Positions 8,906-28,115 of a stretch of DNA of 64,000 nucleotides are shown here, one piece after another. The notes below the pieces were generated by a model that was not told the origin of the DNA, ran no database searches, and saw only the letters and a program-made list of their open reading frames with translations. Numbering within the stretch: position 1 is the first letter of the stretch; the number at the start of each line of letters is the position of its first letter. The position numbers and the translations under genes are program-made. The stretch spans positions 3,584,324 through 3,648,323 of the forward strand of contig NZ_LT559262.1 of NCBI RefSeq assembly GCF_900083545.1. Direction: 5' to 3'. Origin of the DNA: Alistipes provencensis. Lineage in GTDB: Bacteria; Bacteroidota; Bacteroidia; Bacteroidales; Rikenellaceae.

Positions 8906-8906
8906 G

Positions 8907-10278: not shown

Positions 10279-11358
10279 CTAATTGAACCGATACCCCGCC
10301 TTGCGCAGGTCGTCCGACGAACGGAAAGGCTTGGGAGGCGTCAGGTAACGGGCGAGAAACTCGTAAGCCTTATAACGGATGTCGGTCGCTTCGCGGGTGT
10401 CGATGCGGTCGAACAGGTGTGCCCCGGGCATCGGCGGATAGACCTTATATTCGAAATCCTTTTTATAGAAATTCAGCGAGTCGATCATGCGCCGGACCTC
10501 GCGGACGCTCACGTCGTCGTCGTTCTCCGCAGTAGTGATCATCAACGGAATCCGCAGCTCTTTGGCATAGTTCACCGGTGAACGGCGGGCATACTCCTCG
10601 GGAGCCTCTTGCGGGGTCTTGCCGATATGGTACGAAGCGGTGAAGTTATCGGTATACCCCGGCTTCTGATATTCGAGACGGTAGGTCACGTCGGAGACCG
10701 GGACCCCCGCATAACCGCAGGCATAGACCTCGGGATATTTACAGGCGTTCATCAGCGTAATCATCCCGCCGTGGCTCCATCCCAGCAGCCCCACCCGCCG
10801 GGAATCGACCATGCGGTAATTCTCCACCATGTAACGGGCAGCCGCCAGCACGTCCTCGTTCTCCAGTCCGCCGTAGTCGATGCTCCGGTAGAAACCCTTG
10901 CCGTAGCCCGTGCTGCCGCGGTAGTCGGGCGCCACGACAAGGTATCCCTGAGCCACGAGTTCACGGATGACATGCGCATAGACCGTGGAGAAAGTGCCGT
11001 GGATGCCCCCGTGGGAGAAAACGACCAACGGATATTTCCTGTTCTGCTTCGCCTTTTTGGGAATGAAGACATAGGCGTAGAAGACGAGGTCGTTGTCCAG
11101 CAGGGCGTCGTGGAAAGCATTGCCCGTTGGGATTTGCCGGAAACGCGGCGGACCGGTCAGGCGGACCTTATCGACATAGGCCACGTCGTCCATCTTGTCG
11201 TACCACAGCACATCCTCGAGTTTCTTGACCACCACGTCAAAATCATGTCCCTGATCTGCGATGCGAGCGGCGAGCGCCGTATGGCTCACCTCCTTTTTCT
11301 CCTGCGCCCCGGCTGCTGCGACGAACAGCAGGAAGAGCGCAACGATCGTTTTTTTCAT
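10279..11358 (-). CDS. Secreted alpha/beta hydrolase, S9 (prolyl oligopeptidase-like) type
   Basis: A 359-aa protein with a signal peptide (MKKTIVALFLLFVAAAGAQ). Its alpha/beta-hydrolase core has a nucleophile elbow GWSHGG, an oxyanion region VFSHGGIHGTFS, an Asp in the TTAENDDDVSV segment and a late His (PGAHLFD). This matches the catalytic domain of S9 peptidases and related acyl hydrolases, without the beta-propeller. It is leftward and lies 43 bases after the regulator at 11402-15487, so it may be co-transcribed with it. Substrate unknown; ester or peptide hydrolysis on the target glycoconjugate of the neighbouring locus is possible. Confidence 0.8.
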   Translation of the reverse strand: MKKTIVALFLLFVAAAGAQEKKEVSHTALAARIADQGHDFDVVVKKLEDVLWYDKMDDVAYVDKVRLTGPPRFRQIPTGNAFHDALLDNDLVFYAYVFIPKKAKQNRKYPLVVFSHGGIHGTFSTVYAHVIRELVAQGYLVVAPDYRGSTGYGKGFYRSIDYGGLENEDVLAAARYMVENYRMVDSRRVGLLGWSHGGMITLMNACKYPEVYACGYAGVPVSDVTYRLEYQKPGYTDNFTASYHIGKTPQEAPEEYARRSPVNYAKELRIPLMITTAENDDDVSVREVRRMIDSLNFYKKDFEYKVYPPMPGAHLFDRIDTREATDIRYKAYEFLARYLTPPKPFRSSDDLRKAGYRFN

Positions 11359-11401
11359 AGTTCCGAGCGATTTAATCATTCATTGTATTGACTGTCGTTT
11401 T

Positions 11402-14400
11402 TCAGAATTCGGCCCCGTCACCGGGCGCAGCCCGTTCGAGACTCTTGATATAGTCGTTGGGACGCATCCCGAACTGCTTGAAAAAGCACTTGGCAAAATA
11501 GGACGACGAGTTGAACCCCACCAGAAAACCCACCTCCGTGGCCCGGTAATGCCCCTCGGCCATCAGTTTGCAGGCCACTTTGAGTCGGATGAGTTTGATA
11601 AAATCGTTGGGGGTCGTCCCGGTGATGGCTTTCAGTTTGACGAACACCGAGGTGCGGCTCATCCCCATCTCTTGTGCCAACATTTCAATGGAGAAGTCCG
11701 GCACGGTGATGTTCTCCGTAATGATGGCCGTACAGCGGTCTACAAACTCCTGATCCAGCCGGTTGTAGGCCTCGATGCGCGTCGCAGGCTGGGGCGTGGA
11801 AACAAAGACCTCGCGGAGCCGGTTGCGGCCGGCAATGAGGTTTGTGAGCTGTGCATTGAGGTGGGCAATGGAGAAGGGTTTTTCGATGTAGGCGTCGGCG
11901 CCGTACTCCAACCCCTGAATCTTGGTTTCGAGGTTGGTCTTGGCGGTCAGCAGCACCACCGGGATATGCGAAGTGTCGATGTCGGTCTTGATGCGGCGAC
12001 ACAGCTCGAGGCCGTCCATTCCGTCCATCATCACGTCGCTTATCACCAGATCGACCCGGTTTTTGGCCAGCATAAGCAACGCCTCCTCGCTGCTCGCCAC
12101 AGCGATACAGAAGTAGCGTTCGCCCAATACCCGGGTGAGAAAATCCAGTATTTCGGCATTATCGTCGACCAGCATGACAGTATAGCGCCGCACCGGGGCT
12201 CCGGCCTCCTCAACGGCCTCCGGATCGGAGTCGGCAGGGCTCTCCGAGATGAGATCGTCGATGATGAACTCATGGAGCCGGCTCTCCGTCCCGGTGTCGG
12301 CCGCCGACGTCCCGCGGACGGGCAGTTCCACACGGAAGGAGGCGCCCGAAAGCCCATCGTCCCGGTCGGAAACGGAGATCGTCCCTCCGAGTAATTCAAC
12401 CAATTGCCGGGTCATGTGCAGCCCGATGCCGCTGCCTTTGGTCGCCGAACGGTCGGAAGCGACCTGATAGAAAGGCCGGAATATCTTCTCGCGCTCAGCA
12501 GGGGCAACGCCCGGCCCGTCGTCTCCGACAACGAATGTCACCAGCTCCCCGCATTGCCGCACTTCGAGCCAGATATACCCGGAGGCATGTTTGATGGCAT
12601 TGGAAAGGAGGTTGCTGAGAATCTTGGTCAGCGCCTCACGATCGGTGATCAGCGTCAGGTCCTGCGGCTCGACCGCCACATTCAACCGGATGCCCCGCTG
12701 CCGGGCCGTCGGGCCGAACAGCGGCACGATCCCGTCGACGAGCTCCTTCACGCCGCAGGGAGCATAGCTGAGACGGTAATTGCCCGAATCGACCTTGCGG
12801 AAGTCGAGCAGTTGTGTCACCAGCGCAAAGAGACGTTTGTAGTTCATCTCGATAATATCGAGGTATTCGCCGTATCTGTCGTTCATCGGCCGCGACTTGC
12901 GAATGTATTCCAGCGGCCCGATGATGAGGCTCAGCGGCGTCCGTATCTCGTGCGTAATGTGGGTGAAGAAGTTGATCTTGGCGTCGTAGACCTCCTGCCG
13001 GGTCTTCGCTTCAAGCTGCCGGAGTTTCTCGCTGTGCTTCCTGTCCGAACGCCGGAGCAGGTAACGGATCAGGACGGTCAGCCCCAGCAGCAGGATAAGC
13101 GCATAGAGCGTCAGCGCCACGGGCGATTTGAGCGCATGCGGACGGACGACGATATCGAGCACGGTCTGTCCGCCACCCCACACCCTGTTGTTGCCTGCAC
13201 TCTCGATACGCAACGTATAGCGGCCGGAAGGAAGGTTGTTGTAGTTGACGATACGGTTGCGGCCGTCGGTGACATACCATTTGTCGTCGAAGCCATCCAG
13301 TTTGTAACGGTAGAGCATCTCGGCCGGATTGACGTAACTCAATGCCGCGAATTCGATACTGAGCATCCGCTGGTCGTGAGCCAGCACAACCTCACGCGTC
13401 GTCTCGATGGAACGCACCAGCGGCGATCCGTCGCTCCGGGGAGTGACAGGGCGGTTGTAAATGGAAAGCGACGTGAGTACCACCGGCGGAACCGCGCGGT
13501 TATTGTCCGTGAGACGATGGGGCGAGAAAGTACAAAGGCCGTCGGTGGTGCCCAGAACAAACAGACCGCTATAGTCAACCAAGCAGGCGTGCCCGGAGAA
13601 CTGCTCGTTGTAAAGCCCGTCCGAGCGGGAAAAAAGCCGCGTCACATTCGTTGCCGTGTTCCAGCGCACGAGCCCCTTATTGGTTGCGATCCAAAGCGTT
13701 TCGCCGCTGGGAACGATACCCGAAATGATGCGGTTGGGAAGCGGCAGATCGTCGTAACGGACAAAAGCGTCCGTAGCGGCATCGTAACGGCAGACGCCGT
13801 AACCGTCGGAACCGATCCACAGACGGCCGTCGTGATCGACGGTCAGCACCGTAAGCACGTTGCGCACCAACGAGTGAGGATTGTCCGGATCAGCCAGATA
13901 GTGACGGCAAGCCCCTGTCCGAACGTCGTAGCGATAGAGTCCGTCCTCTTTGGTTGCGATCCAGAGATTGTGGTCGCCATCCTCGGCGATGGCCGCGATA
14001 CGGACGGGAATACCCAGCCGGACGAAGCAATCCTGCTCACGGTCATAACGGCACAACCCGTTGGCCGTTCCCAGATAGATACGCCCGGTAGCGCTCTTGA
14101 AAAGGACGAAGACACGCGACGAGGGAAGCGAATGTTCGTCGTCCGGATCGTGGGAATAGCTCTTCACGCGGCCGGTCCGCAGGTCGAACACCTCCAGTCC
14201 CCGTTCATAGGTGGCGACAAAGAGCTGGTTGCCGTCGTACAGCAGGTCCGAAACAATGTATTGGGACGCCCCGATATCCGCCGCCGTGCGGAAAGGCTTG
14301 ACTTCCCCGGTCAGCGTATTGACGGTATAGACGCCGTCGTCGTCGGTACCCACCCAGATAATCCCTTTTTCACCCTCGCTCAGGGCCTTGATGATCCGTC

Positions 14401-15487
14401 CCTTACCCGAGGAGGAGCAGTTGTCGCATCCGTAGAAGCGAAAATCGTGCTGCATCGGCGGAAAATACTCCGCTCCGTAGAAATAGGAACCCAGCCACAA
14501 ACCGCCCTCACGGTCTTTATAGGCCTTGTAAACCAGTTCGTTCGCAACGGGAAGCACGCGCGGTTTGTGTTTATCGCCCGAACGGATCACCCCCTCTTCG
14601 ATCTGAAAGATGCCGACCCCGTTGTCCGAAGCGACGAGTATCTCGTCGGGACCATAGGCGACGATGTCGTGGATGTGGTGGAGCAGGCTGCCGGGACGCC
14701 CGTCGCGGTAGTTGACGAAACGTCCGGTCCGGCGGTCAAAACAATCGATACCGGAAGAGTAGGTTCCGATCCAGAGATAGCCGACCGCATCTTCGTAGAT
14801 GCTGTGCACCTGATTGTCCGAAAGACCGCCCGGCTGTTTGCGGTAGGCGGTAAAACGCCCGGTCCGCTTCGAAAAGGCGCAGAGCCCCTGATCGTAGGTC
14901 CCCACCCAGACAACTCCTTCGCTGTCAACCAAGAGCGAAGCGACCGAATTCTGAGAAATGGTCGACGCATCGGCCGGATCATGCCGGTAAACCCGCAACC
15001 GGCCGGTGGAGGGCGTATAACGGTAAAGTCCGTCGGTCATCGTCCCGATCCACAATTCACCGTCCGCGTCCTCGGCAATACGCAGCACCCGGCCGCTGAT
15101 GGCTTCACCCGCATCGGTCCGGACGTCGAAATGGCTGAAAACGCCCGTTTGGGGATCGTAGACATCGACCCCGCTGTCCAAAGCGATCCACATACGATTG
15201 TCCCGGCTTATCAGCAGCCAGCGGACACTGTTGCTCGACATCCCGTCGCCATCCTCGCCTGTATAGTAGTACTTTCGGAAATCGAGCCCGTCGAAACGGT
15301 TGAGCCCGTCGTTGGTCCCGAACCAAATGAAGCCCAGCGAATCCTGCACAATGCTGTAAACACGATTCGACGAAAGTCCGTTCTCCATCACATACCGACG
15401 CGATATAACGCGGTCCGAGGTACGGGCCGCCACGACCGAGACCGCTGCGAACAGTAACAAGATATGGAGGATGATTCCGCGTTTCAT
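11402..15487 (-). CDS. Hybrid two-component system regulator (HTCS) of the GH89 locus
   Basis: A 1361-aa one-protein signalling chain. The order is signal peptide; about 14 Reg_prop beta-propeller repeats (to about residue 690); Y_Y_Y domain; a transmembrane helix (LTLYALILLLGLTVLI); HisKA with the phospho-acceptor His in FFTHITHEIRTP; HATPase (NLLSNAIKHA, GDDGPGV, GSGIGLHM); a complete receiver (MLVDDNAE, DVMMDGMDG, LLTAKT, IEKPFS); and an AraC-type HTH at the C-terminus. HTCS proteins sense glycan fragments in the periplasm and activate the linked susCD genes. The start is ATG 15487; a perfect TAAATTTG box sits 24 bases upstream. It is transcribed separately from the SusCD run by virtue of the terminator at 15531-15568. 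Confidence 0.95.
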   Translation of the reverse strand: MKRGIILHILLLFAAVSVVAARTSDRVISRRYVMENGLSSNRVYSIVQDSLGFIWFGTNDGLNRFDGLDFRKYYYTGEDGDGMSSNSVRWLLISRDNRMWIALDSGVDVYDPQTGVFSHFDVRTDAGEAISGRVLRIAEDADGELWIGTMTDGLYRYTPSTGRLRVYRHDPADASTISQNSVASLLVDSEGVVWVGTYDQGLCAFSKRTGRFTAYRKQPGGLSDNQVHSIYEDAVGYLWIGTYSSGIDCFDRRTGRFVNYRDGRPGSLLHHIHDIVAYGPDEILVASDNGVGIFQIEEGVIRSGDKHKPRVLPVANELVYKAYKDREGGLWLGSYFYGAEYFPPMQHDFRFYGCDNCSSSGKGRIIKALSEGEKGIIWVGTDDDGVYTVNTLTGEVKPFRTAADIGASQYIVSDLLYDGNQLFVATYERGLEVFDLRTGRVKSYSHDPDDEHSLPSSRVFVLFKSATGRIYLGTANGLCRYDREQDCFVRLGIPVRIAAIAEDGDHNLWIATKEDGLYRYDVRTGACRHYLADPDNPHSLVRNVLTVLTVDHDGRLWIGSDGYGVCRYDAATDAFVRYDDLPLPNRIISGIVPSGETLWIATNKGLVRWNTATNVTRLFSRSDGLYNEQFSGHACLVDYSGLFVLGTTDGLCTFSPHRLTDNNRAVPPVVLTSLSIYNRPVTPRSDGSPLVRSIETTREVVLAHDQRMLSIEFAALSYVNPAEMLYRYKLDGFDDKWYVTDGRNRIVNYNNLPSGRYTLRIESAGNNRVWGGGQTVLDIVVRPHALKSPVALTLYALILLLGLTVLIRYLLRRSDRKHSEKLRQLEAKTRQEVYDAKINFFTHITHEIRTPLSLIIGPLEYIRKSRPMNDRYGEYLDIIEMNYKRLFALVTQLLDFRKVDSGNYRLSYAPCGVKELVDGIVPLFGPTARQRGIRLNVAVEPQDLTLITDREALTKILSNLLSNAIKHASGYIWLEVRQCGELVTFVVGDDGPGVAPAEREKIFRPFYQVASDRSATKGSGIGLHMTRQLVELLGGTISVSDRDDGLSGASFRVELPVRGTSAADTGTESRLHEFIIDDLISESPADSDPEAVEEAGAPVRRYTVMLVDDNAEILDFLTRVLGERYFCIAVASSEEALLMLAKNRVDLVISDVMMDGMDGLELCRRIKTDIDTSHIPVVLLTAKTNLETKIQGLEYGADAYIEKPFSIAHLNAQLTNLIAGRNRLREVFVSTPQPATRIEAYNRLDQEFVDRCTAIITENITVPDFSIEMLAQEMGMSRTSVFVKLKAITGTTPNDFIKLIRLKVACKLMAEGHYRATEVGFLVGFNSSSYFAKCFFKQFGMRPNDYIKSLERAAPGDGAEF

Positions 15488-15510
15488 GGGCAATTCGCCG
15501 TATCCGGAAA

Positions 15511-15518
15511 CAAATTTA
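15511..15518 (-). promoter_or_regulatory. -7 box for the HTCS gene
   Basis: TAAATTTG on the minus strand, matching TAnnTTTG, 24 bases before the ATG at 15487. No clear -33 TTTG. Confidence 0.55.
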
Positions 15519-15530
15519 ATCTTTTTTTCG

Positions 15531-15568
15531 AAAAAGAGCTTTCATGACCCGACAGGCCATGAAAGCTC
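15531..15568 (-). terminator. Terminator of the SusC-SusD-FISUMP operon
   Basis: A perfect 11-bp inverted repeat (15536-15546 and 15558-15568), followed in the leftward direction by five T. It lies 29 bases past the stop of the lipoprotein gene at 15597. Confidence 0.8.
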
Positions 15569-15596
15569 GGCTCCGGTATTCCTCTCTACGAGAGAA

Positions 15597-17357: not shown

Positions 17358-17388
17358 AGTTCTCGGTTTTAGATTGTTCTATTTTCGT

Positions 17389-18978
17389 TTATTCGTTATT
17401 GGTCTGGTATACCTCGTCATAGGTCTCGTAACCCGGATTCTGCTGGTTGCGGATGGCCTTGTTGGCCTCCAGTTCCGACAGCGGAATCGGATAGACGACC
17501 TGCATGCGTGCCTGACTCTTGCCCGAGCCGTAACCGAAGGCAATGGTTATCTTGTTGGCATTTTCAAGCAGTTCGGGACGCTTCATCGTCTCGCCCCGGC
17601 GAAAATAGTCCCAGTAGTTGTGCCCCTCGAGCATCAGTTCCCGGCGCCGCTCGGCGAGCACCTCGGCGAGAGCCCCCGAAACAGAGGAGGACTCGAATCC
17701 CGTCGTGTTCGCGCGCGCCTCACGCACGCAGTTGTAATAGGGTTCGGCCAGCGCAACGGAACCGCCCTCCTTGCAGAGGTAAGCCTCGGCCAGCGTCAGA
17801 TAGATCTCAGGCAGGCGGATGACAGGCTGATTGTAGACATAGTGATAGGTCTCACCCACATATTTGCGGTAACCCTTATAGTCCTTGTTGGCAATGCCCA
17901 AGTCGCAGACCAGATAGCCGCGCACATCGTCGGGATCGGACTGCAGCAGGGCGACCGTGGCCGGGAACAATCCGTAGGCGGCATAACCGACAGCCTGCGA
18001 CACCTGTCCGTCGTTCTCTGCACCCGGATTTTCGTAGGTGGGCTTGCGGACAAGGTAGTTGAGGCTGTTGCCGCCGTTGTTGTCCGAAAGGCTGTAGACG
18101 AGTTCCCAGATATTCTCCGAGTTGAAGGGCTTGTAGTAGGAGGTCTTGTAGGTGTCGTAAGGAATCATCCGGTAGGTCCCGGCGGCGGCCCTCAACGCCT
18201 CCTCGCCCTGCTCAATGACATCGTCCCAGCGCTCCATGTAGAGATACAGGCGCGCCAGCAGGCCGCAGACGGCCACATAGTTGACGTGTCCCTGACGCGG
18301 AGCCGTGCCGGTCAGCAATCGCTTGGCCTCGAGCAGTTCGCCCTCGATGTAACCATAGACCGTGACCGCCGAATCGCGGCGCACCTCGTAGTCGAGGATG
18401 TTGTTGGCCATGTCCATGCCATCGAGAATGGGCACGCCCCACGCATAGGCTCCGGGCGTGGCGCCGATGTCGTACTCCTCGCCGTCGGGGAAGGAGAAGC
18501 GCGGCGGGTAGGCGAACAGCCGCATCAGGTCGAAATAGGCCAGTCCGCGCAGTGCACGGGCTTCACCCTCGACCCGGTGCAGGTCGTCGTCGCCCATGCC
18601 CTGCACTCCGCCGATAGCCTCGATGACGTCGGTGGCGGTCCGGATGCCGCCGTAAATCTTGAGCCACAGTCCCGAAGCGGCCCCCGACGAGGCTGTAGAC
18701 TCGGCATAGCGGTTCTCGCGTTCGAAGCTGTTGCCGCTCGACACGCGCACGAAGAAGTCGTTGCCCTTGGCGGCCTCGTAGGCCATCAGGTTGCGTCCGT
18801 AATAGTTCGCATGCTGGAAGATGTCGTAGACACCGTTGAGCAGCGCTTCGATACCTTCGGGGGTCTTCAGTATCTCCCTGTCCTGATCGGTGTAGGACTC
18901 CTTGTCGAGGAAATCCCCGCACGAAGACAGCCCCGGAAGCAGGAGAAGCGCAGCCAAATAGATCCGTATCTTTTTCAT
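17389..18978 (-). CDS. SusD/RagB-family glycan-binding outer membrane lipoprotein
   Basis: A 529-aa SusD-like protein: lipobox LSSC (Cys about residue 20) and the family opening CGDFLDKES. TPR-like helices follow (RGLAYFDLMRLFAYPP), and the C-terminal RagB/SusD region has EVLAERRRELMLEGHNYWDYFRRGE. SusD proteins cap the SusC channel and capture glycan at the surface. It is 12 bases downstream of SusC and on the same strand. Confidence 0.95.
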   Translation of the reverse strand: MKKIRIYLAALLLLPGLSSCGDFLDKESYTDQDREILKTPEGIEALLNGVYDIFQHANYYGRNLMAYEAAKGNDFFVRVSSGNSFERENRYAESTASSGAASGLWLKIYGGIRTATDVIEAIGGVQGMGDDDLHRVEGEARALRGLAYFDLMRLFAYPPRFSFPDGEEYDIGATPGAYAWGVPILDGMDMANNILDYEVRRDSAVTVYGYIEGELLEAKRLLTGTAPRQGHVNYVAVCGLLARLYLYMERWDDVIEQGEEALRAAAGTYRMIPYDTYKTSYYKPFNSENIWELVYSLSDNNGGNSLNYLVRKPTYENPGAENDGQVSQAVGYAAYGLFPATVALLQSDPDDVRGYLVCDLGIANKDYKGYRKYVGETYHYVYNQPVIRLPEIYLTLAEAYLCKEGGSVALAEPYYNCVREARANTTGFESSSVSGALAEVLAERRRELMLEGHNYWDYFRRGETMKRPELLENANKITIAFGYGSGKSQARMQVVYPIPLSELEANKAIRNQQNPGYETYDEVYQTNNE

Positions 18979-18990
18979 GGTGCTTTGCGA

Positions 18991-21900
18991 TTAGAAGTTG
19001 AAGTTGAGACCGGCCGTGAAGGTCATGGCCGAGGGGTATTTGGCCGTAGCGATGTAACCGTCGATCTGCAGGTCGGGATCGTAGCCCTGCGCCTCGGTCC
19101 ACACCCAGAGGTTCTCGGCCTGCACGAAGAGCGAGAAGCCTGTCATGCGCAGTTTGCGGAAAGTGCTGGCCGGGAAGGTGTATTGCAGGCGAACGTTCTT
19201 CATCTTGAGGTAGTCGCCCTTATAGAGGTAACGCGTGGAACTGCCCGCCGAGGTCTGGCCGTTGATGCGGATGCGGTTGGAGGCGTAGCGGTTGTCCGGG
19301 GTCCAGCGGTCGAGCTGGCGCGCGTCGATGTTGTAGTCCATCGACTGGCCGTCGATACCCGTGCGGCCCGCGGCGCGCGAATCGTAGACGTCGTGTCCCC
19401 ACGCATAGGTGAACAACGCCGAGAGGTCCCAGCCGCGGTAGCTGAACAGTGTGTTGAAACCGCCCGACACGGTCGGAACGCCCTTGCCCACGATGCGGCG
19501 GAACGAGGGGTTGTCGCTGTTGGAAATGATGTCGTTGCCATATTCGTCCACACCGTAGTAGAGCACCTGTCCGGTGTTGGAGTCGATGCCGGCGAACTTG
19601 TTCAGGTACCACGCACCGACACTCTGTCCGTTGCGCATGATCTGGGCATTGGAGCCGATGATGTCCTGTTCCAAACCGAAATATTTGGCGCTCAGGGTGG
19701 CCATGTTGAGCTTGAGATCCCACTTGAAGAGCTTGTTGAGGATATGCGCGTCGAGGTCCAGCTCGAAGCCCCGGTTGCGGATGCCCGCCGAGGTGTTCAT
19801 CAGCATCGTGCTGTATCCCGACACCTGCGACACGGGAACCTCCTGCAACAGATCGGTGGATTTGCGCGAGTAGTACTCGGCCGAAATGCGGATGCGGTCC
19901 CTGAACATCCCCAAGTCGACGCCCACATTGAAGACGTTATTCTTCTCCCAGCTCAGGTCGTAAGTCGCACGGAACGTCTGCGAAAGGGCGTGCCCGGAGT
20001 CATAACGTCCCGAACCGTTGTAAAGCGTCCGCCAGTTGTAGTATTTCGACGGCAGGTTGCCGTTGTAGCCGTAGCTCGCCTTGAACTTGATGTTGTTGAA
20101 TATCCGCTTCACAGGGTCCAGCCACGCCCAATTCTCGTTGGTGATGCGGTAAGCCGCCGACACGGACCAGAAATTACCCGTTCGGTGTTCGGGCGAGAAA
20201 CGCGAAGAACGATCCTGACGGAACGACCCCCCGATGAAATAGCGGTAGCGGTAGGAATAGTCGGCACGGGTGACGATCGAGACCTGCGAATAGTCATAAC
20301 CGCTGCCGTTCCACCCCGAGATTTCGGCGGCGGACGAAAGTACGGGCCGCAGGTCGTTGAGGAAATTGACCGCCGTCACGGAGTTCCACTCCTGACGGAA
20401 ATCCACCAGTTCCAACCCCGCCGTCGCGCTGAAGCGGTGACGTCCGTTGAGCGTATAGTTGAAGTTGAGCATATTCTTGTTGGTGGTCTTCAGGCGCTTC
20501 GAATCATAATCGGTCAGCTCGCCGCCCACGAGGTAACCCGTACCGAAATCCCGGTCGAAATAGTCGGAGCGTCGGCCGGTGATGTAGTACTGCGAAATAT
20601 CCGAACGGAAATCGAGCCAGTCGGTGATGTTGAGCCGCACCCACGCCGAGACGAAGAGGTTGAACTGCGGGCGTTTGCGGATGTTGTCGCGGGCACTGGC
20701 GATGGGGTTGTGGTTGCCGTTGAGCAGGTTGTTGGGAAAGCGGAAGTTATAGGAACCGTCTTCGAGGTAGGCCGGGACGACCGACGGCAGCAACAGCGCC
20801 GCGTAATGGGGCATGTTGTAGTTCGAACCGCTGGTGAGAGGCCCCGACTGTTCGGTTCGGCTGATGTTGGCCGAAGCTCCCCAGTTGATACGTTTCTTGC
20901 GGTCGTCGGCGCTCACGCTGACACGGGCCGAATAGCGTTGCAGGTCGCTGTTGATAATGATGCCCTGCTGGTTGAGGTAGCCCACGGACATATAGTATTT
21001 CAGGGTCGAACTGCCGCCCGAAAGCGAAAGGTCGTACTGCTGGAACGAGGCGTTGCGCAGGATCTTGTCGTACCAGTCGACCGAAGGGAGTTTACCGGCG
21101 TCGGCTCCCCAGAAGTCGTAGCTGTAGTACGAACCGTCGGGCCGGGGAACGGCGTAGTAATTGTTGAAATCCTGCTGCGCCTGCTTGTACCACTGGTAGT
21201 AGTTCTTACCGTCGACCGTGAAGCCAAGCTTGTTGTTATAAAGCCCGTTGAGGTTCTCGACGAACTGTCCGCCGGCCTGTTGCACCAAACGGTGGAATTG
21301 ACCTTCGGTCCAAAGTTCCTTGTACTGCTCCGAATCGACGAGGTCGGGCCGCACTGCCGGAGAGATGCGCGAGAAACCCGCTTGCACCGAGAGCGTATAG
21401 CGCACGCGATCGGACGGGACGCCCTGCTTGGTGGTAATGACGATCACGCCGTTGGCGCCCTGCGAACCGTAGAGCGACGCCGAGGCGGCGTCCTTGAGGA
21501 TGGTGATGCTGGCAATGTCAGCCGGATTGAGCGTAGCCATGGGGCTCGACACCGCACCGCTGTGCCCCGAGGTGTTGTCCTGATCGAAGACCACTCCGTC
21601 GATGACATAGAGGGGTTGCCCGCCCGAACCGATCGACCCGAAGCCGCGCAGACGCAGTTCGGCCGCATCGCCGGGCTGTCCGGAGCCCGAAGAGAGCAGG
21701 CCGGGGACAAGTCCGCCGAGCAGACCCTCGAACGACCCCGCGGCACGCCGGGAAATGTCGTTCGACGAAAGTATCGAGGCTGAACCCGTATAGGCCTCCC
21801 TAAGGATGTTCCCGTAACCGGTCACCACCACGTCGCTGATTTTCACGGCATCGCTTTTCAGCACCACGTCGATCGTACTCCGACGCCCCACCTCGACCGT

Positions 21901-22242
21901 CTGCGGCTCCATGCCGAGGAAACGATAGGTCAGCTTCAGGCCTTCGCGGGGCATTACCTGTATCTGGTAAGAACCGTTCTTGTCGACGGCCACGGCGTTC
22001 GTGGTCCCCTCCTCGGTGACGGTGGCGCCGAAAAGCGGCTGGTTGCTCTCGTCGAAGACATACCCTTTGACGGTTGTCTTCGCCGCGGCCGGCTGCCGCC
22101 GCACCGAATCCGCTGCCGGGGAGGCCGGATTCCCGGCAGCGTGCACCGACGCGAAAGCCGGGACAAGCAGGGTCAGAAATGCGACACATGCCGCCACACC
22201 CTTGCGCCGCAAACGGTTCGCATTTGTAGGACAATAGTTCAT
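18991..22242 (-). CDS. SusC/RagA-family TonB-dependent outer membrane transporter
   Basis: A 1083-aa transporter. The order is signal sequence (hydrophobic GVAACVAFLTLLVPAFASVHA), carboxypeptidase-regulatory-like domain (TVKGYVFDESNQPLFGATV, about residues 57-130), plug domain with the SusC signature (VVVTGYGNILREAYTGSAS), and a long beta-barrel ending in an aromatic C-terminus (GLNFNF). With SusD it imports oligosaccharides using TonB energy. It is first of the SusC-SusD-FISUMP block and lies 34 bases after the esterase gene, so probably in one transcript with the two esterases. Confidence 0.96.
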   Translation of the reverse strand: MNYCPTNANRLRRKGVAACVAFLTLLVPAFASVHAAGNPASPAADSVRRQPAAAKTTVKGYVFDESNQPLFGATVTEEGTTNAVAVDKNGSYQIQVMPREGLKLTYRFLGMEPQTVEVGRRSTIDVVLKSDAVKISDVVVTGYGNILREAYTGSASILSSNDISRRAAGSFEGLLGGLVPGLLSSGSGQPGDAAELRLRGFGSIGSGGQPLYVIDGVVFDQDNTSGHSGAVSSPMATLNPADIASITILKDAASASLYGSQGANGVIVITTKQGVPSDRVRYTLSVQAGFSRISPAVRPDLVDSEQYKELWTEGQFHRLVQQAGGQFVENLNGLYNNKLGFTVDGKNYYQWYKQAQQDFNNYYAVPRPDGSYYSYDFWGADAGKLPSVDWYDKILRNASFQQYDLSLSGGSSTLKYYMSVGYLNQQGIIINSDLQRYSARVSVSADDRKKRINWGASANISRTEQSGPLTSGSNYNMPHYAALLLPSVVPAYLEDGSYNFRFPNNLLNGNHNPIASARDNIRKRPQFNLFVSAWVRLNITDWLDFRSDISQYYITGRRSDYFDRDFGTGYLVGGELTDYDSKRLKTTNKNMLNFNYTLNGRHRFSATAGLELVDFRQEWNSVTAVNFLNDLRPVLSSAAEISGWNGSGYDYSQVSIVTRADYSYRYRYFIGGSFRQDRSSRFSPEHRTGNFWSVSAAYRITNENWAWLDPVKRIFNNIKFKASYGYNGNLPSKYYNWRTLYNGSGRYDSGHALSQTFRATYDLSWEKNNVFNVGVDLGMFRDRIRISAEYYSRKSTDLLQEVPVSQVSGYSTMLMNTSAGIRNRGFELDLDAHILNKLFKWDLKLNMATLSAKYFGLEQDIIGSNAQIMRNGQSVGAWYLNKFAGIDSNTGQVLYYGVDEYGNDIISNSDNPSFRRIVGKGVPTVSGGFNTLFSYRGWDLSALFTYAWGHDVYDSRAAGRTGIDGQSMDYNIDARQLDRWTPDNRYASNRIRINGQTSAGSSTRYLYKGDYLKMKNVRLQYTFPASTFRKLRMTGFSLFVQAENLWVWTEAQGYDPDLQIDGYIATAKYPSAMTFTAGLNFNF

Positions 22243-22276
22243 AAGCTCGGGTTTTAAGTTTTGTTCTCGGTTCGGT

Positions 22277-23284
22277 CTATCGTTCGAAAATCAGGCTGTA
22301 GGCCCCGCGGCCCGTCACATCCTTGAGGTTGTAGACCCGCTCGTCGTTCTCGATGCGCCAGTTGCGCACGCTTCCCTGTCCGTAGACCATCTGGCCGCTG
22401 TTGTGCCCGGCGCCGGGCACCTCCTGAATGGTCCAGTTGAACTCCAGCCCCTTTTTGAGAGCGATGTCGCGCGAGGCGTTGAAGAACTTCCATGCCCGCT
22501 CGTAGCGGTGACGGCCCTGAATGCGGTTGGGATTGTTCTCGGCCATGTCGGGGCTGACGGGCTCGGTGTCCTCGGTGCCGATCAGGATGATCAGGTCGCG
22601 CTTGAAGAAGGGCGCGAGATAGTCGTCCGAAGCAAAGGGGGTGTCCTTCACCGAATAGGGCCAACCGGGAGGATCCGCAGGTTCGCCCGAAGGGGTGAAA
22701 AGCCCGCGCTCGTCGGGATAGGTGTAGTTGCCGGGATTGGCCGCCACGGCACGTCCCACACGCGCTTCGGGCATGGCCAGCAGGTAACGGTGGACGAACT
22801 GCCCGCCGGCCGAATGGCCGAACATGTCGTAAGTCTCGCTCACATTGCCGGTCTTCTCCTTGAAATAGTCGAAAATGGCCTCGATAAGCCGGTAAGTCCA
22901 CACCTCGCGCGGCCGCAGGCGGAAAATCTTCGGATCCTCGGAGACCCAGCCGAACTGGTAGCCGTTCTCCAGATAGCCGTTGTCGTGCTTGAACTCGGGA
23001 GCCAGTACGATGAAGCCGTACTCCTCGGCCAGATTGCGCCAGACACCGCGCTGGATGCGGCCGCTGCGCTCGGCGCCGTGCATGGAGACAAGCACCCGCA
23101 TCTTCTTGATGTTGCCCTGCGTGGGAATGTAGTAATAGAGGTTCACGGGGTGCTCTTTCATCGGTCCGTAGCCCGTGAAGACCATCATCCCGCCACCGCG
23201 CCGAAACTTGCCGTCGTCTTGGGCGAAAGAGCCCGAAAAGACGAAGAGCACGGCGAAAATCGAAAGGATCGTACGTTTTATCAT
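22277..23284 (-). CDS. Secreted esterase, alpha/beta hydrolase (esterase 2 of a tandem pair)
   Basis: A 335-aa secreted alpha/beta hydrolase (signal peptide to about residue 21). It has an oxyanion-type VSMHGAERSG motif, the nucleophile S158 in FGHSAGGQF and a probable catalytic His in GAGHNSGQM. This resembles feruloyl/acetyl esterases of the CE1 or PHB-depolymerase-like group. It is closely similar to the next gene (23290-24303) along its length, so the two arose by tandem duplication. It has no lipobox, so it is probably periplasmic, unlike its sibling. Likely removes O-acyl groups from the glycan handled by this locus; substrate is inferred. Confidence 0.8.
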   Translation of the reverse strand: MIKRTILSIFAVLFVFSGSFAQDDGKFRRGGGMMVFTGYGPMKEHPVNLYYYIPTQGNIKKMRVLVSMHGAERSGRIQRGVWRNLAEEYGFIVLAPEFKHDNGYLENGYQFGWVSEDPKIFRLRPREVWTYRLIEAIFDYFKEKTGNVSETYDMFGHSAGGQFVHRYLLAMPEARVGRAVAANPGNYTYPDERGLFTPSGEPADPPGWPYSVKDTPFASDDYLAPFFKRDLIILIGTEDTEPVSPDMAENNPNRIQGRHRYERAWKFFNASRDIALKKGLEFNWTIQEVPGAGHNSGQMVYGQGSVRNWRIENDERVYNLKDVTGRGAYSLIFER

Positions 23285-23289
23285 AGCAG

Positions 23290-24303
23290 TTATTCGAACA
23301 GTAAGTTAAATGCGCTGTTTTTGCCGCGGGCCTCGGTATCGGCGGGATTCGTCACGGAAGCCTTGCCGTAGACCATCCGCAGGGTCGAGTGGCCGACGCC
23401 GTCGACCTCGGAGAGAACGAAATGAAGCGGCAGTCCCGACTCCCCCGCCACCGTCGTACAGGCCGCGAAGAAATTCCGCCCGCGGGCATAACGGTGCGGA
23501 CCCTGAGCCATCGACGGAGCGTCCTTGGGCAGCGACGAGTCGTTCTCGTCGGTATCGGCGGTACCTACCTGAACATACATTTTCCGGGCGAAGAAGGCCG
23601 TAAGGTGTCCGGCATCGGCAAAGGGCGTCGCGGCGACAGCATAGGGCCAGCCGTAGGATTTCCCGTCGGTTCCCGTGATACCCTCGGCAAAGGGAAAGGT
23701 CCACGACCCGGGATTGGCGGCCACGGCACGCCCCACACGCGCCCCGGGCATGGCCAGCAGGAAGCGGTGGACGAACTGCCCGCCGGCCGAATGACCGAAG
23801 AGATGATAGGTCGCAGAGGTATTGCCCGTTTCGCTTTTGAAATAATCGAAAAGCGCCTCGACGGTCCGATAGGTCCACTTCGGCTCCTCATTGAGCACAC
23901 CGGAACCGGCCGAACGGTAGACACCCCCGAACTGGTAGTCATTTTCCGTATAATAAGTCTTGGAATATTCCGGCGCCAGAACGACGAAGCCGTACTCTTC
24001 GGCGAAATATTTCCAAGCGTTGCGCTGGATGGTGCCGTCACGCTCGGCGCCGTGCATGGAAAAGAGCACGGGCATCCGTTCGACCTCGCCGCCGGAAGGA
24101 ATGTAGTAGTAGAGCGTGATCGGCTTGTCCTTCAACGGTTCATAGCCCGTATAGACGAACGAACCTTCGCCGCGCTGCTCGAACACCCCGTCCTTAGGCA
24201 CGATGCCGGGCGGGGGGGGGTTCACGGGTTCGCCCTGATCCTTGCCGGAGCAGGAGGCAGACAGAAGGACAGCCAGCAAAAGATATTTCAGTTTGTCATA
24301 CAT
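23290..24303 (-). CDS. Lipid-anchored esterase, alpha/beta hydrolase (esterase 1 of a tandem pair)
   Basis: A 337-aa paralogue of the preceding entry, but with a lipobox (SASC, about residue 18), so it is probably anchored at the membrane, perhaps at the surface. Shared motifs: FSMHGAERDG, FGHSAGGQFVHRF and a His in GVGHSTLRM. A run of nine C on the coding strand (window 24212-24220) encodes the Pro stretch just after the lipid anchor; a one-base slip there would truncate the protein. The start at 24303 is chosen because it begins the signal peptide (MYDKLKYLLLAVLL). It is 5 bases upstream of esterase 2. Confidence 0.8.
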   Translation of the reverse strand: MYDKLKYLLLAVLLSASCSGKDQGEPVNPPPPGIVPKDGVFEQRGEGSFVYTGYEPLKDKPITLYYYIPSGGEVERMPVLFSMHGAERDGTIQRNAWKYFAEEYGFVVLAPEYSKTYYTENDYQFGGVYRSAGSGVLNEEPKWTYRTVEALFDYFKSETGNTSATYHLFGHSAGGQFVHRFLLAMPGARVGRAVAANPGSWTFPFAEGITGTDGKSYGWPYAVAATPFADAGHLTAFFARKMYVQVGTADTDENDSSLPKDAPSMAQGPHRYARGRNFFAACTTVAGESGLPLHFVLSEVDGVGHSTLRMVYGKASVTNPADTEARGKNSAFNLLFE

Positions 24304-24406
24304 GGGCGGACGGGTTTCATATTTTAAAATTAGACAATTCGTCAATATCCGAAGGAAAATCGAGTACAAAAAAACAACAAAATCGTGCGACCGGCCTTCG
24401 GGGGCA

Positions 24407-26944
24407 TCAGCGGACCAGCTCGATGATCCCGAACGAATCGGCTGCCGCAGGACCGTCGAGAGTGACGAAAAGCGCCGCTTCGGCCGGAACGGTGCGCTGC
24501 GCATGACGGATCGGAATGACCGCTTCGGTGTGTGCGGGCCCCATCTCGGCTTCGCGCTGCGTCGAAGCGATATTCACCCGGTTGACCTGAAGGACGGGAT
24601 TCCCCGCACGCACGCTCCCGCCACCCCGCAGAACATGGAAACGGACACCCCGGATACCGGGCACGGTCGCAGGATCGAGCGTCAGGCGGATGCGCCGCCG
24701 GGAGCCGTCGAATTCGAACGGCGACCACGAACCGACCATTCCCCGCGATTCGGGACGCACGAAGTCGCTCCCATAGGCTCCGTAGCGGGCGAACAGCTCT
24801 TCGACCGCAGCCTGCACATCGGGACAGCGTTCCTGCGGCGAAAGGGGTTCGGCGGCCGACGCGAGCCATGCAGAGTCGAGCCGCGCGAAGTCGGGCGTCA
24901 TGCCGCGTTCCTTGCAATCGAAATAGTGCTCCCAACGGGGCACGATATAGTCGCGGATCAACCCCGACCAGACCCGACAGGCGTAATCGTGGAGCGAGGC
25001 ACCATCGCTCCAGCAGGTGACAAGCCGCCGGGCGTCACGCCGGTAACGCTCCTTCTCCGCATCGCTGTGCCCCCGGGCTTCGGCAAAGCCGAGCCACCGT
25101 TCGAGCCTGTAATTGGGAGTCGATTCCAGCAAACGGTCGGCGGCGAGGAGCAGCGAGAGGAAGGTATCGCGTTCCGCAGCGGCGGTCGCCGGATCGCCCG
25201 CAAGATAGGCGGCGTTAGCGCGCTCGACGGCAATGTCCGCCTTGCCGGCCGCATAGAGCGCCGCATAGAGCGCCAGATCAGCGCGGTAGAGCCTGCTGTC
25301 GGACAGTTCCGGTCCGGCAGCCGCAAAGTGTTCCACGGCCCGGAAGAAATCGGCCGAAAGATCGACCGGACTGCGCCGCTGATCGTAAGGGGTCATCTGC
25401 CAGCGGTAGCGGGCCTGATTGGGAATGGAAACCGAATAGGAAGAACGGAGGATATGGTCCCAGAAACGGCCGAGCTCCCCGGGACAATCCCCGTAGCGGT
25501 TGCGGGCATAGCGTCGCACCCATTGCCCCACGTCGATCGGCTCGGAGGACCAGCCCGCATCGGCGATCATTTCGTACACCACATCGTTGTTCTCCACCCC
25601 TTCGGGTGCCGTGCCGTAGCCGACGAGGTTACCCCTACGCGCCGATTGCAGGGCAGCCAGATGACCGTTTGCATAGAATTCCAACGAGCCGCTGAGGGCC
25701 GAACGTCCCCCGAAATTGGGCACGGTGCTGTAAATCCACTGCTTGCCGCAGAAACCGTCGGCATACTCCCAGCCGGGGGTGTTGCGCCACACCATGGCGT
25801 TGAAATCCTCGGCCAGATCGACCACCAGCAATTTGTCGTCAGGAGCCCCCGCCAGCAGGGCCCGGATATTGTCCGGAGTCCATATGTCGCGCTGGTAGCC
25901 GAACATCCATCCCTGCAACACCCACACGGCGTCAGGATTGACGGCTGCGATGCTCTCGTAGATGGTTTTGCCGTAACGGGTCAACTGCGTGTGGACCTCC
26001 TCGGGCGAAAGTTCCCCGAAGGGAAGTTCCATCTCGTTGAACGAATCCACGAGGTAGTATTCACCCCGTCCGAACTCCCGTTCCCACTCCTCCATATAGC
26101 GGGCGGCAATCTCCCGGAAGACGGGCGATTCGACCGGGAGCATCCAACTCTTCATGTGACCGTTCCAGCGGGTCTCAGTCAACGTGACCCCGGGACGCAC
26201 GCGGGCGATGGCCGGAGGCACGAAGCCGGCGAAACCGCTGAATACGGGCGTGATGCCCAGTCCGCGCATGCGTTCGAGAATCCGGTGCTGGAGGGCGACC
26301 TGTTCGTCGAGCCACTGCTCCGAAAGAGGAGAGTCCAGCCCGCTCATGTTCCCCATACGCATCCAAGGCAAGTGCCCCGGGGCGGTGAAGAGTTCATTGA
26401 TCTCCTCTTCCGTAAGCCCCATATCACGCCATACGCGCGCCAGAATGGCCTCGCTGCCGATAGGCGCCAGCGCCATATCGAAGCCGTGCAGCGCCATCCA
26501 GTCGAGTTCCTTCTCCCACTCGTTCCAGCTCCAGTAGGGATAGGTATAGCCAAACGTGCATACGTTCATATAATAATGGTGGCGAAACGGCGATCTGACC
26601 TCGCGCAGCGGTGTATCGGGGAGCCGTTCGGGCAGTTCCATACGCGTACCCGTCCACGTCACCTGACCGTAGCCGTTGGTCGTAACATAATCGTAGAATC
26701 CCCGCGTCAGGGCCACGCCGCTGCTGCCCTCGATCACGAGGCATCCGTCCGTCACACGGGTCGCAAAGCGGTCATGCCCGTCGGGCGCCTTCTCCGTCAG
26801 ACGCAGTTCGACATCGGGGGCGCGGCGGCCGAGCGTGCGTTCGATCACCTCCCGGGCACAGGATTCGGGACTTTGCGGAGCATCGCCGCACGACAGTGTC
26901 ACCACAGCGAGAAGAAACAAAAGGACAGGTCGGTAGATTTTCAT
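24407..26944 (-). CDS. Alpha-N-acetylglucosaminidase, GH89 (NAGLU family) lipoprotein
   Basis: An 845-aa lipoprotein (lipobox TLSC) of glycoside hydrolase family 89. Recognisable family blocks are YYMNVCTFGYTYPYWSWNEWEKELDWMALHGF, GNMSGLDSPL, and the active-site segments VDSFNEMELPF and GYGTAPEGVENN. E304 and E448 fit the acid/base and nucleophile positions of human NAGLU and Clostridium GH89 enzymes. The activity is release of terminal alpha-linked GlcNAc, as in alpha-1,4-GlcNAc-capped gastric mucin O-glycans or heparan fragments. ATG 26944 is preferred because a TAATTTTG promoter box lies at 26978-26985; ATG 26968 is the alternative. It heads the leftward glycan locus. Confidence 0.93.
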   Translation of the reverse strand: MKIYRPVLLFLLAVVTLSCGDAPQSPESCAREVIERTLGRRAPDVELRLTEKAPDGHDRFATRVTDGCLVIEGSSGVALTRGFYDYVTTNGYGQVTWTGTRMELPERLPDTPLREVRSPFRHHYYMNVCTFGYTYPYWSWNEWEKELDWMALHGFDMALAPIGSEAILARVWRDMGLTEEEINELFTAPGHLPWMRMGNMSGLDSPLSEQWLDEQVALQHRILERMRGLGITPVFSGFAGFVPPAIARVRPGVTLTETRWNGHMKSWMLPVESPVFREIAARYMEEWEREFGRGEYYLVDSFNEMELPFGELSPEEVHTQLTRYGKTIYESIAAVNPDAVWVLQGWMFGYQRDIWTPDNIRALLAGAPDDKLLVVDLAEDFNAMVWRNTPGWEYADGFCGKQWIYSTVPNFGGRSALSGSLEFYANGHLAALQSARRGNLVGYGTAPEGVENNDVVYEMIADAGWSSEPIDVGQWVRRYARNRYGDCPGELGRFWDHILRSSYSVSIPNQARYRWQMTPYDQRRSPVDLSADFFRAVEHFAAAGPELSDSRLYRADLALYAALYAAGKADIAVERANAAYLAGDPATAAAERDTFLSLLLAADRLLESTPNYRLERWLGFAEARGHSDAEKERYRRDARRLVTCWSDGASLHDYACRVWSGLIRDYIVPRWEHYFDCKERGMTPDFARLDSAWLASAAEPLSPQERCPDVQAAVEELFARYGAYGSDFVRPESRGMVGSWSPFEFDGSRRRIRLTLDPATVPGIRGVRFHVLRGGGSVRAGNPVLQVNRVNIASTQREAEMGPAHTEAVIPIRHAQRTVPAEAALFVTLDGPAAADSFGIIELVR

Positions 26945-27149: not shown

Positions 27150-28115
27150 ATGCAAAAGAGAATAGTCGTACTGGGCGGCGTGGGGTTCATCGGCACCCAC
27201 CTGTGCCTGCGTCTGCTGGACGAGGGCCACGAAGTTTTCTGCGTGGACGTACGCGATACCGCCAATTCGCCGCTGCTGCGCGACATGCCCCCGTATCCGG
27301 GGTTCCGGTATGTCCGCCACAACATCGTCAACCATTTCGGGATTCGCTGCGACGAGATCTACAACCTCACCTCGCCGTCGCGCGTGCGTTACAACAAGGC
27401 GCTGCCCGTCGAAACGCTCAAGGTCAGCATGCTGGGGTCGATAAACGCCCTCGACACCGCCCGCACGGAGCATGCCCGCATCCTGTTCGCTTCGGCGGGA
27501 AATATTTACGCCACGGACGGCCGCGACACCTCCGAGCAGTCCGGCTCCGGCTCCACGCACCGCATCCTCGCCGAAGGCAATCGCGCCGCCGAGGCGATAC
27601 ACCGCGCCTATCAGCAAGAATTCGGGGTGGACGCCCGCATAGCCCGCATCTTCAACACCTACGGCAGCGGCGCCGACCTGATGGACCAGCGCGTGGTGAT
27701 GAAGATGATCGTCGCGGCGTTACAGAACCGCGACATCCCGGTAAACGGCAGCGGCGAACAGTTGCGGACCTTCTGCTGGGTGGAGGATATCGTGGACGGG
27801 CTGGTGCGGCTGATGGACGCCCCGCCGACCGAGACCACGCGGACGATCAATTTCGGCAGCAACCACGAGGTGGCGATCCGCGCGCTGGCCGAGAAGATCA
27901 TCGCCCTGACGGGCAGCCGCTCGCAGATCGTACACACCGACGCCCGCATCGACGACGTCCGGCGACGTACACCCGACATCTCGGCGGCACGCCGCGAGTT
28001 GGGATGGGCGCCCCGCACGCCGCTCGTCGAAGGGCTGCGCCGCACGATCAGCTACGTCGAGAAGGAGCTCGCCGACAAGACCCATGCGGGAATAACGTGG
28101 GTGGAGATAAGTTAA
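27150..28115 (+). CDS. Extended SDR related to UDP-glucuronate decarboxylase, catalytic residues missing
   Basis: A 321-aa protein of the NAD-dependent epimerase/dehydratase family, closest in layout to UDP-xylose synthase (UXS): Rossmann motif GGVGFIGTHL, YNLTSPS and NTYGSGADLMDQRVV. In UXS the catalytic Tyr and Lys are in YDEGK; here the aligned stretch reads LAEGN (L140, N144, bases 27567-27581), and the upstream TSE is replaced in FASAGNIYA. NAD and sugar-nucleotide binding could be kept, but normal SDR chemistry should not work. It is 12 bases upstream of thioredoxin and probably co-transcribed with it. Role unknown. Confidence 0.8.
   Translation: MQKRIVVLGGVGFIGTHLCLRLLDEGHEVFCVDVRDTANSPLLRDMPPYPGFRYVRHNIVNHFGIRCDEIYNLTSPSRVRYNKALPVETLKVSMLGSINALDTARTEHARILFASAGNIYATDGRDTSEQSGSGSTHRILAEGNRAAEAIHRAYQQEFGVDARIARIFNTYGSGADLMDQRVVMKMIVAALQNRDIPVNGSGEQLRTFCWVEDIVDGLVRLMDAPPTETTRTINFGSNHEVAIRALAEKIIALTGSRSQIVHTDARIDDVRRRTPDISAARRELGWAPRTPLVEGLRRTISYVEKELADKTHAGITWVEIS

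What the first reader, a model, noticed from the sequence alone, without database searches (positions are those of the whole stretch)
10279..26944. GH89 locus with two tandem esterases, SusCD and its own HTCS
An NAGLU-type alpha-N-acetylglucosaminidase, two paralogous alpha/beta hydrolases (one lipid-anchored, one not), SusC, SusD, a BACON/FISUMP lipoprotein and an HTCS all run leftward and close together. The combination suggests a polysaccharide-utilisation locus for an O-acylated glycan capped with alpha-GlcNAc, such as alpha-1,4-GlcNAc-bearing gastric or duodenal mucin. I know of no described system with exactly this set. The genes are clear; the substrate is inferred.
Basis: partly seen in the sequence, partly recalled or inferred. 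Interest (0 to 1): 0.75.

Follow-up and report, generated by a model that had tools for sequence, protein, structure and literature searches.

The report
Gut Sus locus with PahZ1-like hydrolases
A gut bacterium carries a rare set of eight genes for taking up an unknown glycan-bearing molecule; the two enzymes first read as sugar esterases actually resemble enzymes that cut aspartate-polymer amide bonds, so the target may be a sugar-capped peptide rather than a plain acylated sugar.

Summary
The organism is close to a koala-gut Alistipes. The interpretation needs three corrections. (1) The "CE1-like esterases" belong, by sequence, fold and triad, to the poly(aspartate) hydrolase-1 (PahZ1)/LpqC family. 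(2) In the orthologous loci found, glycosidases are the variable part: a Bacteroides MAG keeps EstA-EstB-SusC-SusD-FISUMP-S9 with no GH89 found in its genome, whereas the koala relative adds a GH97 retaining alpha-galactosidase. (3) In 7 of 18 other Bacteroidota genomes with a PahZ1-like gene, isoaspartyl dipeptidase, DcuC and an M14 carboxypeptidase lie nearby; in the other 11 no isoaspartyl dipeptidase was seen nearby, and the window genome has none over cut-off. Best reading: a Sus-type uptake locus for an alpha-capped glycoconjugate, probably a host glycopeptide; the hydrolase pair cuts an acyl bond, amide somewhat more likely than ester. The substrate is undetermined. Alpha-GlcNAc mucin remains possible; "O-acylated glycan" is not shown. 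New variant of a known kind.

The parts
24407..26944 (-). GH89 alpha-N-acetylglucosaminidase, putative lipoprotein (...VVTLSC|GDAPQ); first gene of the run
   Evidence: Pfam NAGLU 391 bits, NAGLU_C 139, NAGLU_N 61; nearest solved human NAGLU 4xwh, 387 bits; catalytic motifs DSFNEM and NFGGRSALSGSLE present
23290..24303 (-). EstA: PahZ1/LpqC-type serine hydrolase, putative lipoprotein (...LLSASC|SGKD)
   Evidence: nearest solved PahZ1 6ve6 E 1.9e-43, 9o7u 1.1e-42, LpqC 3d0k 2.6e-33; triad S/D/H kept
22277..23284 (-). EstB: PahZ1/LpqC-type serine hydrolase, putative exported soluble protein; triad S158-D239-H294
   Evidence: AlphaFold pLDDT 91.7; Foldseek top hits are the two PahZ1 structures, TM 0.88-0.90 normalised by target
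18991..22242 (-). SusC-type TonB-dependent transporter
   Evidence: TIGR04056, 692 bits against 368
17389..18978 (-). SusD-type surface lipoprotein
   Evidence: Pfam SusD_RagB 76 bits, SusD-like_3 73 bits
15597..17357 (-). BACON/FISUMP lipoprotein (SC|EKEESDEE), in the usual place of a surface glycan-binding protein
   Evidence: Pfam Fib_succ_major 61.5 bits, BACON 28.1 bits
11402..15487 (-). Hybrid two-component system (HTCS) regulator
   Evidence: Reg_prop, Y_Y_Y, HisKA, HATPase_c, Response_reg, HTH_18
10279..11379 (-).
   Evidence: Pfam Peptidase_S9 124 bits, BD-FAE 49 bits; candidate Ser, Asp and His of the triad invariant in 7 of 7 relatives aligned

Best explanation
The locus is a Sus-type nutrient-uptake locus of a gut Alistipes for an alpha-capped glycoconjugate, most likely a glycoprotein or glycopeptide. 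Inferred working order: the HTCS senses a breakdown product and switches the run on; surface lipoproteins (GH89, EstA, FISUMP protein, SusD) bind and trim the substrate, GH89 taking off terminal alpha-GlcNAc; EstA outside and EstB after export cut an internal acyl bond, somewhat more likely a (beta-aspartyl-type) amide than an O-acyl ester; SusCD imports the fragments; the S9-type hydrolase finishes them. Shown here: the genes, their families, intact catalytic residues, purifying selection, and that in the four loci found SusCD + EstA + EstB + FISUMP + S9 is constant while glycosidases vary. Inferred: location of each step, bond type, substrate.
For: EstA/EstB: nearest solved proteins are PahZ1 from Pedobacter and Sphingomonas, then LpqC. 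EstB model (pLDDT 91.7): PahZ1 and LpqC TM 0.81-0.90 by target; every other chain among the 50 shown is at 0.59 or less. PahZ1 cleaves beta-Asp amide bonds (PMC4456602, abstract and passages). In 7 of 18 non-Rikenellaceae Bacteroidota genomes with a PahZ1-like gene, isoaspartyl dipeptidase, DcuC and M14 peptidase lie within about 10 kb (NCBIfam and Pfam names for the 4 Bacteroidales loci, TIGR01975 over cut-off in 3 of 4). In the tree (midpoint root) the branches next to the window clade hold these IadA-linked rows, mixed with 3 rows that are not IadA-linked. Core without GH89: L009, no GH89 found in its 2.4-Mb MAG. G022 has related SusC, SusD and FISUMP proteins followed by two C1-type cysteine peptidases and no GH89 found. 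S9 relatives (E up to 1e-70) in 6 of 268 Rikenellaceae, 5 of them among the 8 with PahZ1-like genes. The koala relative has a GH97 alpha-galactosidase in the locus besides GH89.
Against: No isoaspartyl dipeptidase reaches its cut-off in the window genome or in 7 related genomes (0 of 8; 4 of 8 have weak partial matches), so a beta-aspartyl pathway of that kind is not complete here. 11 of 18 genomes show no IadA near the PahZ1-like gene, and the nearest outgroup also holds two Rikenellaceae rows beside other genes. PahZ1 is the only family member with a tested activity known to me; alpha/beta hydrolases switch readily between ester and amide. The S9 protein also matches BD-FAE, an esterase family. 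S9 relatives and PahZ1-like genes also occur apart: G189 has S9 alone, G260, G241 and G236 PahZ1-like alone. SusC's best solved match is a SusC homologue (8aa4), RagA second, so SusCD does not settle glycan against peptide. Two glycosidases in the koala locus speak for a real glycan part.
Confidence: 0.42

Rival explanations
1. One reading: an O-acylated glycan with alpha-GlcNAc caps (such as gastric or duodenal mucin). EstA and EstB remove O-acyl groups, GH89 removes alpha-GlcNAc, SusCD imports.
For: GH89 intact; weak matches to PHB-depolymerase esterases (EstA Esterase_PHB 26.2 bits); alpha-galactosidase GH97 in the koala locus fits mucin-type alpha caps (general knowledge); a bifidobacterial GH89 that recognises GlcNAc-alpha-1,4-Gal and class III mucin glycans is described (PMC8225759 passages).
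Against: Hydrolases are PahZ1/LpqC-type; the core is found without GH89; no sulfatase, sialidase, fucosidase or galactosidase among the eight genes of the window locus.
Confidence: 0.28
2. The core serves a peptide polymer only (isoaspartyl-rich, polyaspartate-like or other protein fragments); GH89 and GH97 are hitch-hikers or deal with contaminating glycans.
For: PahZ1 family and IadA/DcuC/M14 neighbourhoods; cysteine peptidases behind the SusCD-FISUMP run in G022; no GH89 and no HTCS in L009's locus.
Against: GH89 stands directly before EstA in three of the four core loci and is under purifying selection, dN/dS 0.09 and 0.07, the latter with dS near saturation; no IadA over cut-off in these genomes; HTCS regulators are, by general knowledge, mostly glycan-responsive.
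Confidence: 0.12
3. A plant target: phenolic or acyl esters of leaf polysaccharides or glycosides in a herbivore gut; the hydrolases are feruloyl- or tannin-type esterases.
For: Closest named relative is from a koala, a eucalypt feeder; the S9 protein matches BD-FAE; an alpha-galactosidase could also serve plant galactosides (general knowledge).
Against: Alpha-GlcNAc is scarce in plant walls (general knowledge); a feruloyl esterase scores far below PahZ1 in the fold search (8iy8, TM 0.53 by target); no xylanase-, pectinase- or cellulase-type gene among the locus genes identified (flanking genes were not all scanned).
Confidence: 0.1
4. A bacterial cell-wall or capsule polymer with alpha-GlcNAc and alpha-Gal side groups and amide or D-alanyl ester links.
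For: Would join GH89, GH97 and acyl hydrolases in one substrate (inference).
Against: No muramidase, peptidoglycan amidase or phosphodiesterase family among the eight window genes; no direct evidence.
Confidence: 0.05

Closest known systems
Sus-type polysaccharide utilisation locus (PUL) with HTCS
   Same: SusC, SusD, lipoprotein in the surface-glycan-binding-protein place, enzymes and an HTCS in one strand run
   Different: Glycosidase content is one GH89 (plus GH97 in the koala orthologue; none recognised in L009's locus); three of the enzymes are alpha/beta serine hydrolases
PahZ1 poly(aspartic acid) hydrolase-1 (6ve6, 9o7u) and LpqC (3d0k)
   Same: Fold, Ser-Asp-His triad, and G.SAG.QF.HR and QG..R..R motifs
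   Different: 33-34% identity to PahZ1 and 29% to LpqC in the Foldseek alignments; arranged as a tandem pair inside a SusCD locus; activity untested
Bacteroides thetaiotaomicron GH89 Bt3590, human NAGLU, Clostridium perfringens GH89
   Same: GH89 family with both catalytic glutamate motifs
   Different: The window enzyme scores higher to human NAGLU (387 bits) than to CpGH89 (252 bits); no CBM32, a module CpGH89 has, in its Pfam scan; not compared with Bt3590 directly, whose sequence was not held; substrate unknown
Mucin-inducible PUL BT4240-50 of B. theta
   Same: Sus-type locus that mixes glycosidases with a peptide-cutting enzyme (M60-like) to process mucin glycoprotein (PMC11992087, abstract and passages)
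   Different: Different enzyme families; in the passages seen (12 of 63 places) GH89 is named only for a C. perfringens structure
Cyanophycin utilisation locus (cyanophycinase + iadA + transporter)
   Same: Isoaspartyl dipeptidase and transporter beside a polymer hydrolase, as in the IadA-DcuC-M14-PahZ1 clusters found here (described in PMC10206079, passages)
   Different: Those clusters have PahZ1-type hydrolase and M14 peptidase; the window genome has no IadA over cut-off

Membership tests
Sus-type PUL | adjacent SusC and SusD homologues | tested here: met
   TIGR04056 over cut-off; SusD Pfam domains over cut-off
Sus-type PUL | at least one carbohydrate-active enzyme | tested here: met
   GH89; but absent from the orthologous locus L009
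Sus-type PUL | induced by and needed for growth on a glycan | not testable with these tools
   no expression data
GH89 | NAGLU domains and two catalytic glutamates | tested here: met
PahZ1/LpqC family | full-length sequence and fold similarity with Ser-Asp-His triad | tested here: met
   triad in 44 of 44 aligned rows
PahZ1 poly(aspartate) hydrolase | hydrolysis of beta-Asp amide bonds | not testable with these tools
   needs assay
CE1 carbohydrate esterase | closest relatives are CE1-type esterases | tested here: not met
   feruloyl and acetyl xylan esterases and esterase D lie far below PahZ1/LpqC in the fold search; no CE1 model was available to scan, and which chains belong to CE1 is recalled
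HTCS regulator | propeller sensor, Y_Y_Y, kinase, receiver and AraC-type DNA-binding domains in one protein | tested here: met
S9 prolyl oligopeptidase family | S9 catalytic domain with triad | tested here: met
   Peptidase_S9 124 bits; candidate triad residues invariant in 7 of 7
S9 prolyl oligopeptidase family | N-terminal beta-propeller | tested here: not met
   366 aa, no propeller match in Pfam; AlphaFold model too poor to use (pLDDT 58)
Isoaspartyl/cyanophycin-type utilisation locus | isoaspartyl dipeptidase present | tested here: not met
   0 of 8 genomes over cut-off, the window genome included; weak partial matches in 4 of 8

The most novel reading that the evidence does not exclude
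Sus-type loci in gut Bacteroidota have been adapted to glycopeptides or amide polymers through PahZ1-type hydrolases: EstA and EstB are amidases that open beta-aspartyl-type (isoaspartyl) or similar bonds in a host glycoprotein, GH89 and GH97 only remove alpha caps in the way, and this is a natural role for a hydrolase family known from a synthetic polymer.
Probability: 0.25. Interest if true: 0.72.

Novelty: new variant of a known kind. Interest (0 to 1): 0.5.

Why it matters
If right, it shows that a SusCD locus can be built round acyl-bond hydrolases rather than glycosidases, gives the PahZ1 family a natural setting, and warns that annotating such genes as carbohydrate esterases misleads PUL substrate prediction. 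It also gives a testable route to how gut bacteria handle isoaspartyl or glycosylated peptides.

Tried and rejected
Considered and dropped: (a) CE1 esterase pair, because PahZ1/LpqC dominate sequence and fold searches. (b) A complete beta-aspartyl pathway with IadA in the window genome, because no isoaspartyl dipeptidase reaches its cut-off; the unrelated asparaginase-type isoaspartyl peptidase was not searched for. (c) Deciding glycan against peptide from SusC/SusD relatives: SusC's best solved match is 8aa4 and RagA second; SusD's best are named only SusD superfamily or putative sugar-binding protein; inconclusive. (d) Fold search with the S9 model: not done, model too poor (pLDDT 58). (e) A promoter: one weak sigma-70-like match upstream of GH89, chance mean 0.4; also a TAnnTTTG at 26985-26978 (motif recalled, read by eye) without a clear partner; not used. 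(f) Hosts of L008 and L009: one paper search for 'Mgla' gave no usable hit in the 6 of 8 papers listed; none was made for L008's name; hosts stay unknown. (g) Literature on the gene set: the papers listed by searches (5 of 5; 1 of 1; 10 of 11; 12 of 26; 10 of 39) include none whose title or abstract start describes PahZ1-type hydrolases in SusCD loci or beside IadA and DcuC; search 84's terms were too loose to count. No PUL database was available. Papers were read as abstracts and passages only; the rest were seen in listings.

Limits: the order and phylum searches used samples drawn evenly from larger groups, and the E-value cut-offs differ between searches (0.001, 1e-20 in 20, 1e-25 in 46, 1e-60 in 21, 1e-70 in 35, 1e-50 in 45). 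G026 and G100 share gene order around the S9 gene (my reading), so the 5-of-6 overlap is not five independent events; the hypergeometric 3e-8 and the binomial 5e-12 for the IadA neighbourhood (assuming a chance of 0.0055 per genome) ignore relatedness. In G695, G726 and G959 the contig is short or the gene lies at its end, so missing neighbours there mean little. The tree has a midpoint root and no PahZ1 or LpqC rows, since those sequences were not held.
Full report
What is there. Eight minus-strand genes fill 10279-26944 with gaps of about 5 to 110 bases, between a radA-like gene (8850-10274, plus strand) and an epimerase-like gene (27150-28115, plus strand) (coordinates; those two names are my reading of the translations). 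In transcription order: GH89, EstA, EstB, SusC, SusD, BACON/FISUMP lipoprotein, HTCS, S9-type hydrolase.

Where it lives. The window lies in a 3.8-Mb genome held as 5 contigs. The nearest named locus, L007, is 'Alistipes sp. Zagget8'; Zagget is a koala at Lone Pine Koala Sanctuary (PMC5697889, passages; that text does not mention Alistipes, so the link rests on the names). L007, L031 and L063 are the same genome, G015 (contig lengths), and are counted once. The genome-contig scan gave three loci that encode a relative of EstB: L007, L008 and L009.

The two 'esterases'. By sequence the only solved relatives at E up to 0.01 are PahZ1 from two bacteria and LpqC. The EstB model (pLDDT 91.7) gives the same three, then a clear drop to siderophore hydrolases, S-formylglutathione hydrolases and feruloyl esterases. 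The Ser-Asp-His triad is kept in 44 of 44 family members aligned. [quoted passage not shown] So the bond cut here is an acyl bond, ester or amide, and the label CE1 is not supported.

Family neighbourhoods. Of 18 non-Rikenellaceae Bacteroidota genomes with a PahZ1-like gene (5, 13, own genome not counted), 7 have isoaspartyl dipeptidase, DcuC and M14 carboxypeptidase within the stretch fetched round it, 2 more have M14 alone, 9 have none of these (tblastn). NCBIfam names DcuC over cut-off in 4 of 4 Bacteroidales loci scanned and isoAsp_dipep over cut-off in 3 of 4 (the fourth 322.7 against 331.25); Pfam names M14 in the same 4 loci, in two of them in one protein with the PahZ1-like part. The 3 other loci were named by BLAST only. 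In the tree (44 rows, midpoint root) the window pair falls in a 23-row clade (100/95); its sister (96/86) holds two IadA-linked rows and two Rikenellaceae rows that are not; the next two branches out hold the other six IadA-linked rows and one that is not. This suggests, but does not prove, amide-cutting ancestry.

Core and accessories. Four genomes were found with the EstA-EstB-SusC-SusD-FISUMP core: the window's, G015, L008 and L009. S9 follows in all four. GH89 and HTCS are present in three; L009 lacks both at the locus and no GH89 was found in its MAG, whose completeness is unknown. G015 has a GH97 between HTCS and S9, matched by NCBIfam 'retaining alpha-galactosidase' at 1025 bits against 800 and nearest to solved alpha-galactosidases; the window genome's best match to it is 59% identical and lies elsewhere. 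EstA and EstB both have counterparts in L009 and G022, so the duplication is probably old, though EstA's clade support is modest (92/82).

Distribution. PahZ1-like genes: 8 of 268 Rikenellaceae, 6 of 393 genomes sampled from the order and 14 of 365 sampled from the phylum, the own genome counted in each (stricter E-values). SusD: 1 of 393 at E 1e-60, the own genome; 3 of 268 Rikenellaceae by profile. The third, G022, has SusC (48%) and SusD followed by FISUMP-type proteins (three by BLAST, a fourth by my reading) and two C1-type peptidases; no PahZ1-like gene lies on that contig, and I recognised no glycosidase among the genes there, though not all were scanned. S9 relatives: 6 of 268, five of them in genomes with PahZ1-like genes; in G022 one lies directly beside an EstA-type gene; the S9 stretches of G100, G026 and G189 show no PahZ1-like neighbour.

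GH89. Both catalytic motifs are present. The window genome has four GH89 genes, G015 six, G657 two; none was found in G656 and G022. GH89 does not fix the substrate: Bt3590 of B. theta acts on heparosan oligosaccharides, while BfAgnB of Bifidobacterium bifidum recognises GlcNAc-alpha-1,4-Gal and class III mucin glycans (PMC8225759, abstract and passages).

Weighing. A glycan part is supported by GH89 and by GH97 in the koala locus; alpha-GlcNAc and alpha-Gal are both possible mucin caps (general knowledge). A peptide or amide part is supported by the PahZ1 family, its neighbourhoods, S9, and the cysteine peptidases in G022. A sugar-capped glycopeptide fits both. An O-acylated glycan remains the main rival. 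SusC/SusD relatives do not decide.

Verdict. The locus is an ordinary Sus-type system in architecture with an unusual hydrolase core. Interest is moderate because the bond type is undecided without an assay.

Noticed in passing
L067, L068, L069, L070, L099-L102 (unnamed Bacteroidota genomes): A recurring cluster of isoaspartyl dipeptidase, DcuC transporter, M14 carboxypeptidase and PahZ1-like hydrolase, in L067 and L070 with a SusC homologue and in L068 with a Porin_O_P gene; looks like an isoaspartyl or polyaspartate utilisation locus.
   Followed up: partly
L067:9804-12833 and L070:9882-12011: PahZ1-like part and M14 carboxypeptidase domain in one protein.
   Followed up: partly
L032, L034, L038, L040, L042, L043 (genome G022, same genus): Eight PahZ1-like genes in a 1.9-Mb genome, two of the sites tandem pairs, with no match to the window's SusC or SusD in the stretches fetched.
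   Followed up: partly
L098:9052-18705 and L117:223-4807: SusD followed by several FISUMP-type lipoproteins (three by BLAST, a fourth by eye) and two C1-type cysteine peptidases.
   Followed up: partly
L063:8608-10605: GH97 retaining alpha-galactosidase between HTCS and S9 in the koala relative's locus.
   Followed up: yes
L046, L047, L048 (window genome, contig C5): Three further GH89 genes: two beside SusC/SusD homologues, the third (51-52% identical to the window enzyme) near a SusC homologue.
   Followed up: no
L103:5096-10380: A PahZ1-like gene beside a SusC-like receptor and a SusD-looking lipoprotein in a distant Bacteroidota genome (SusD label is my reading).
   Followed up: no
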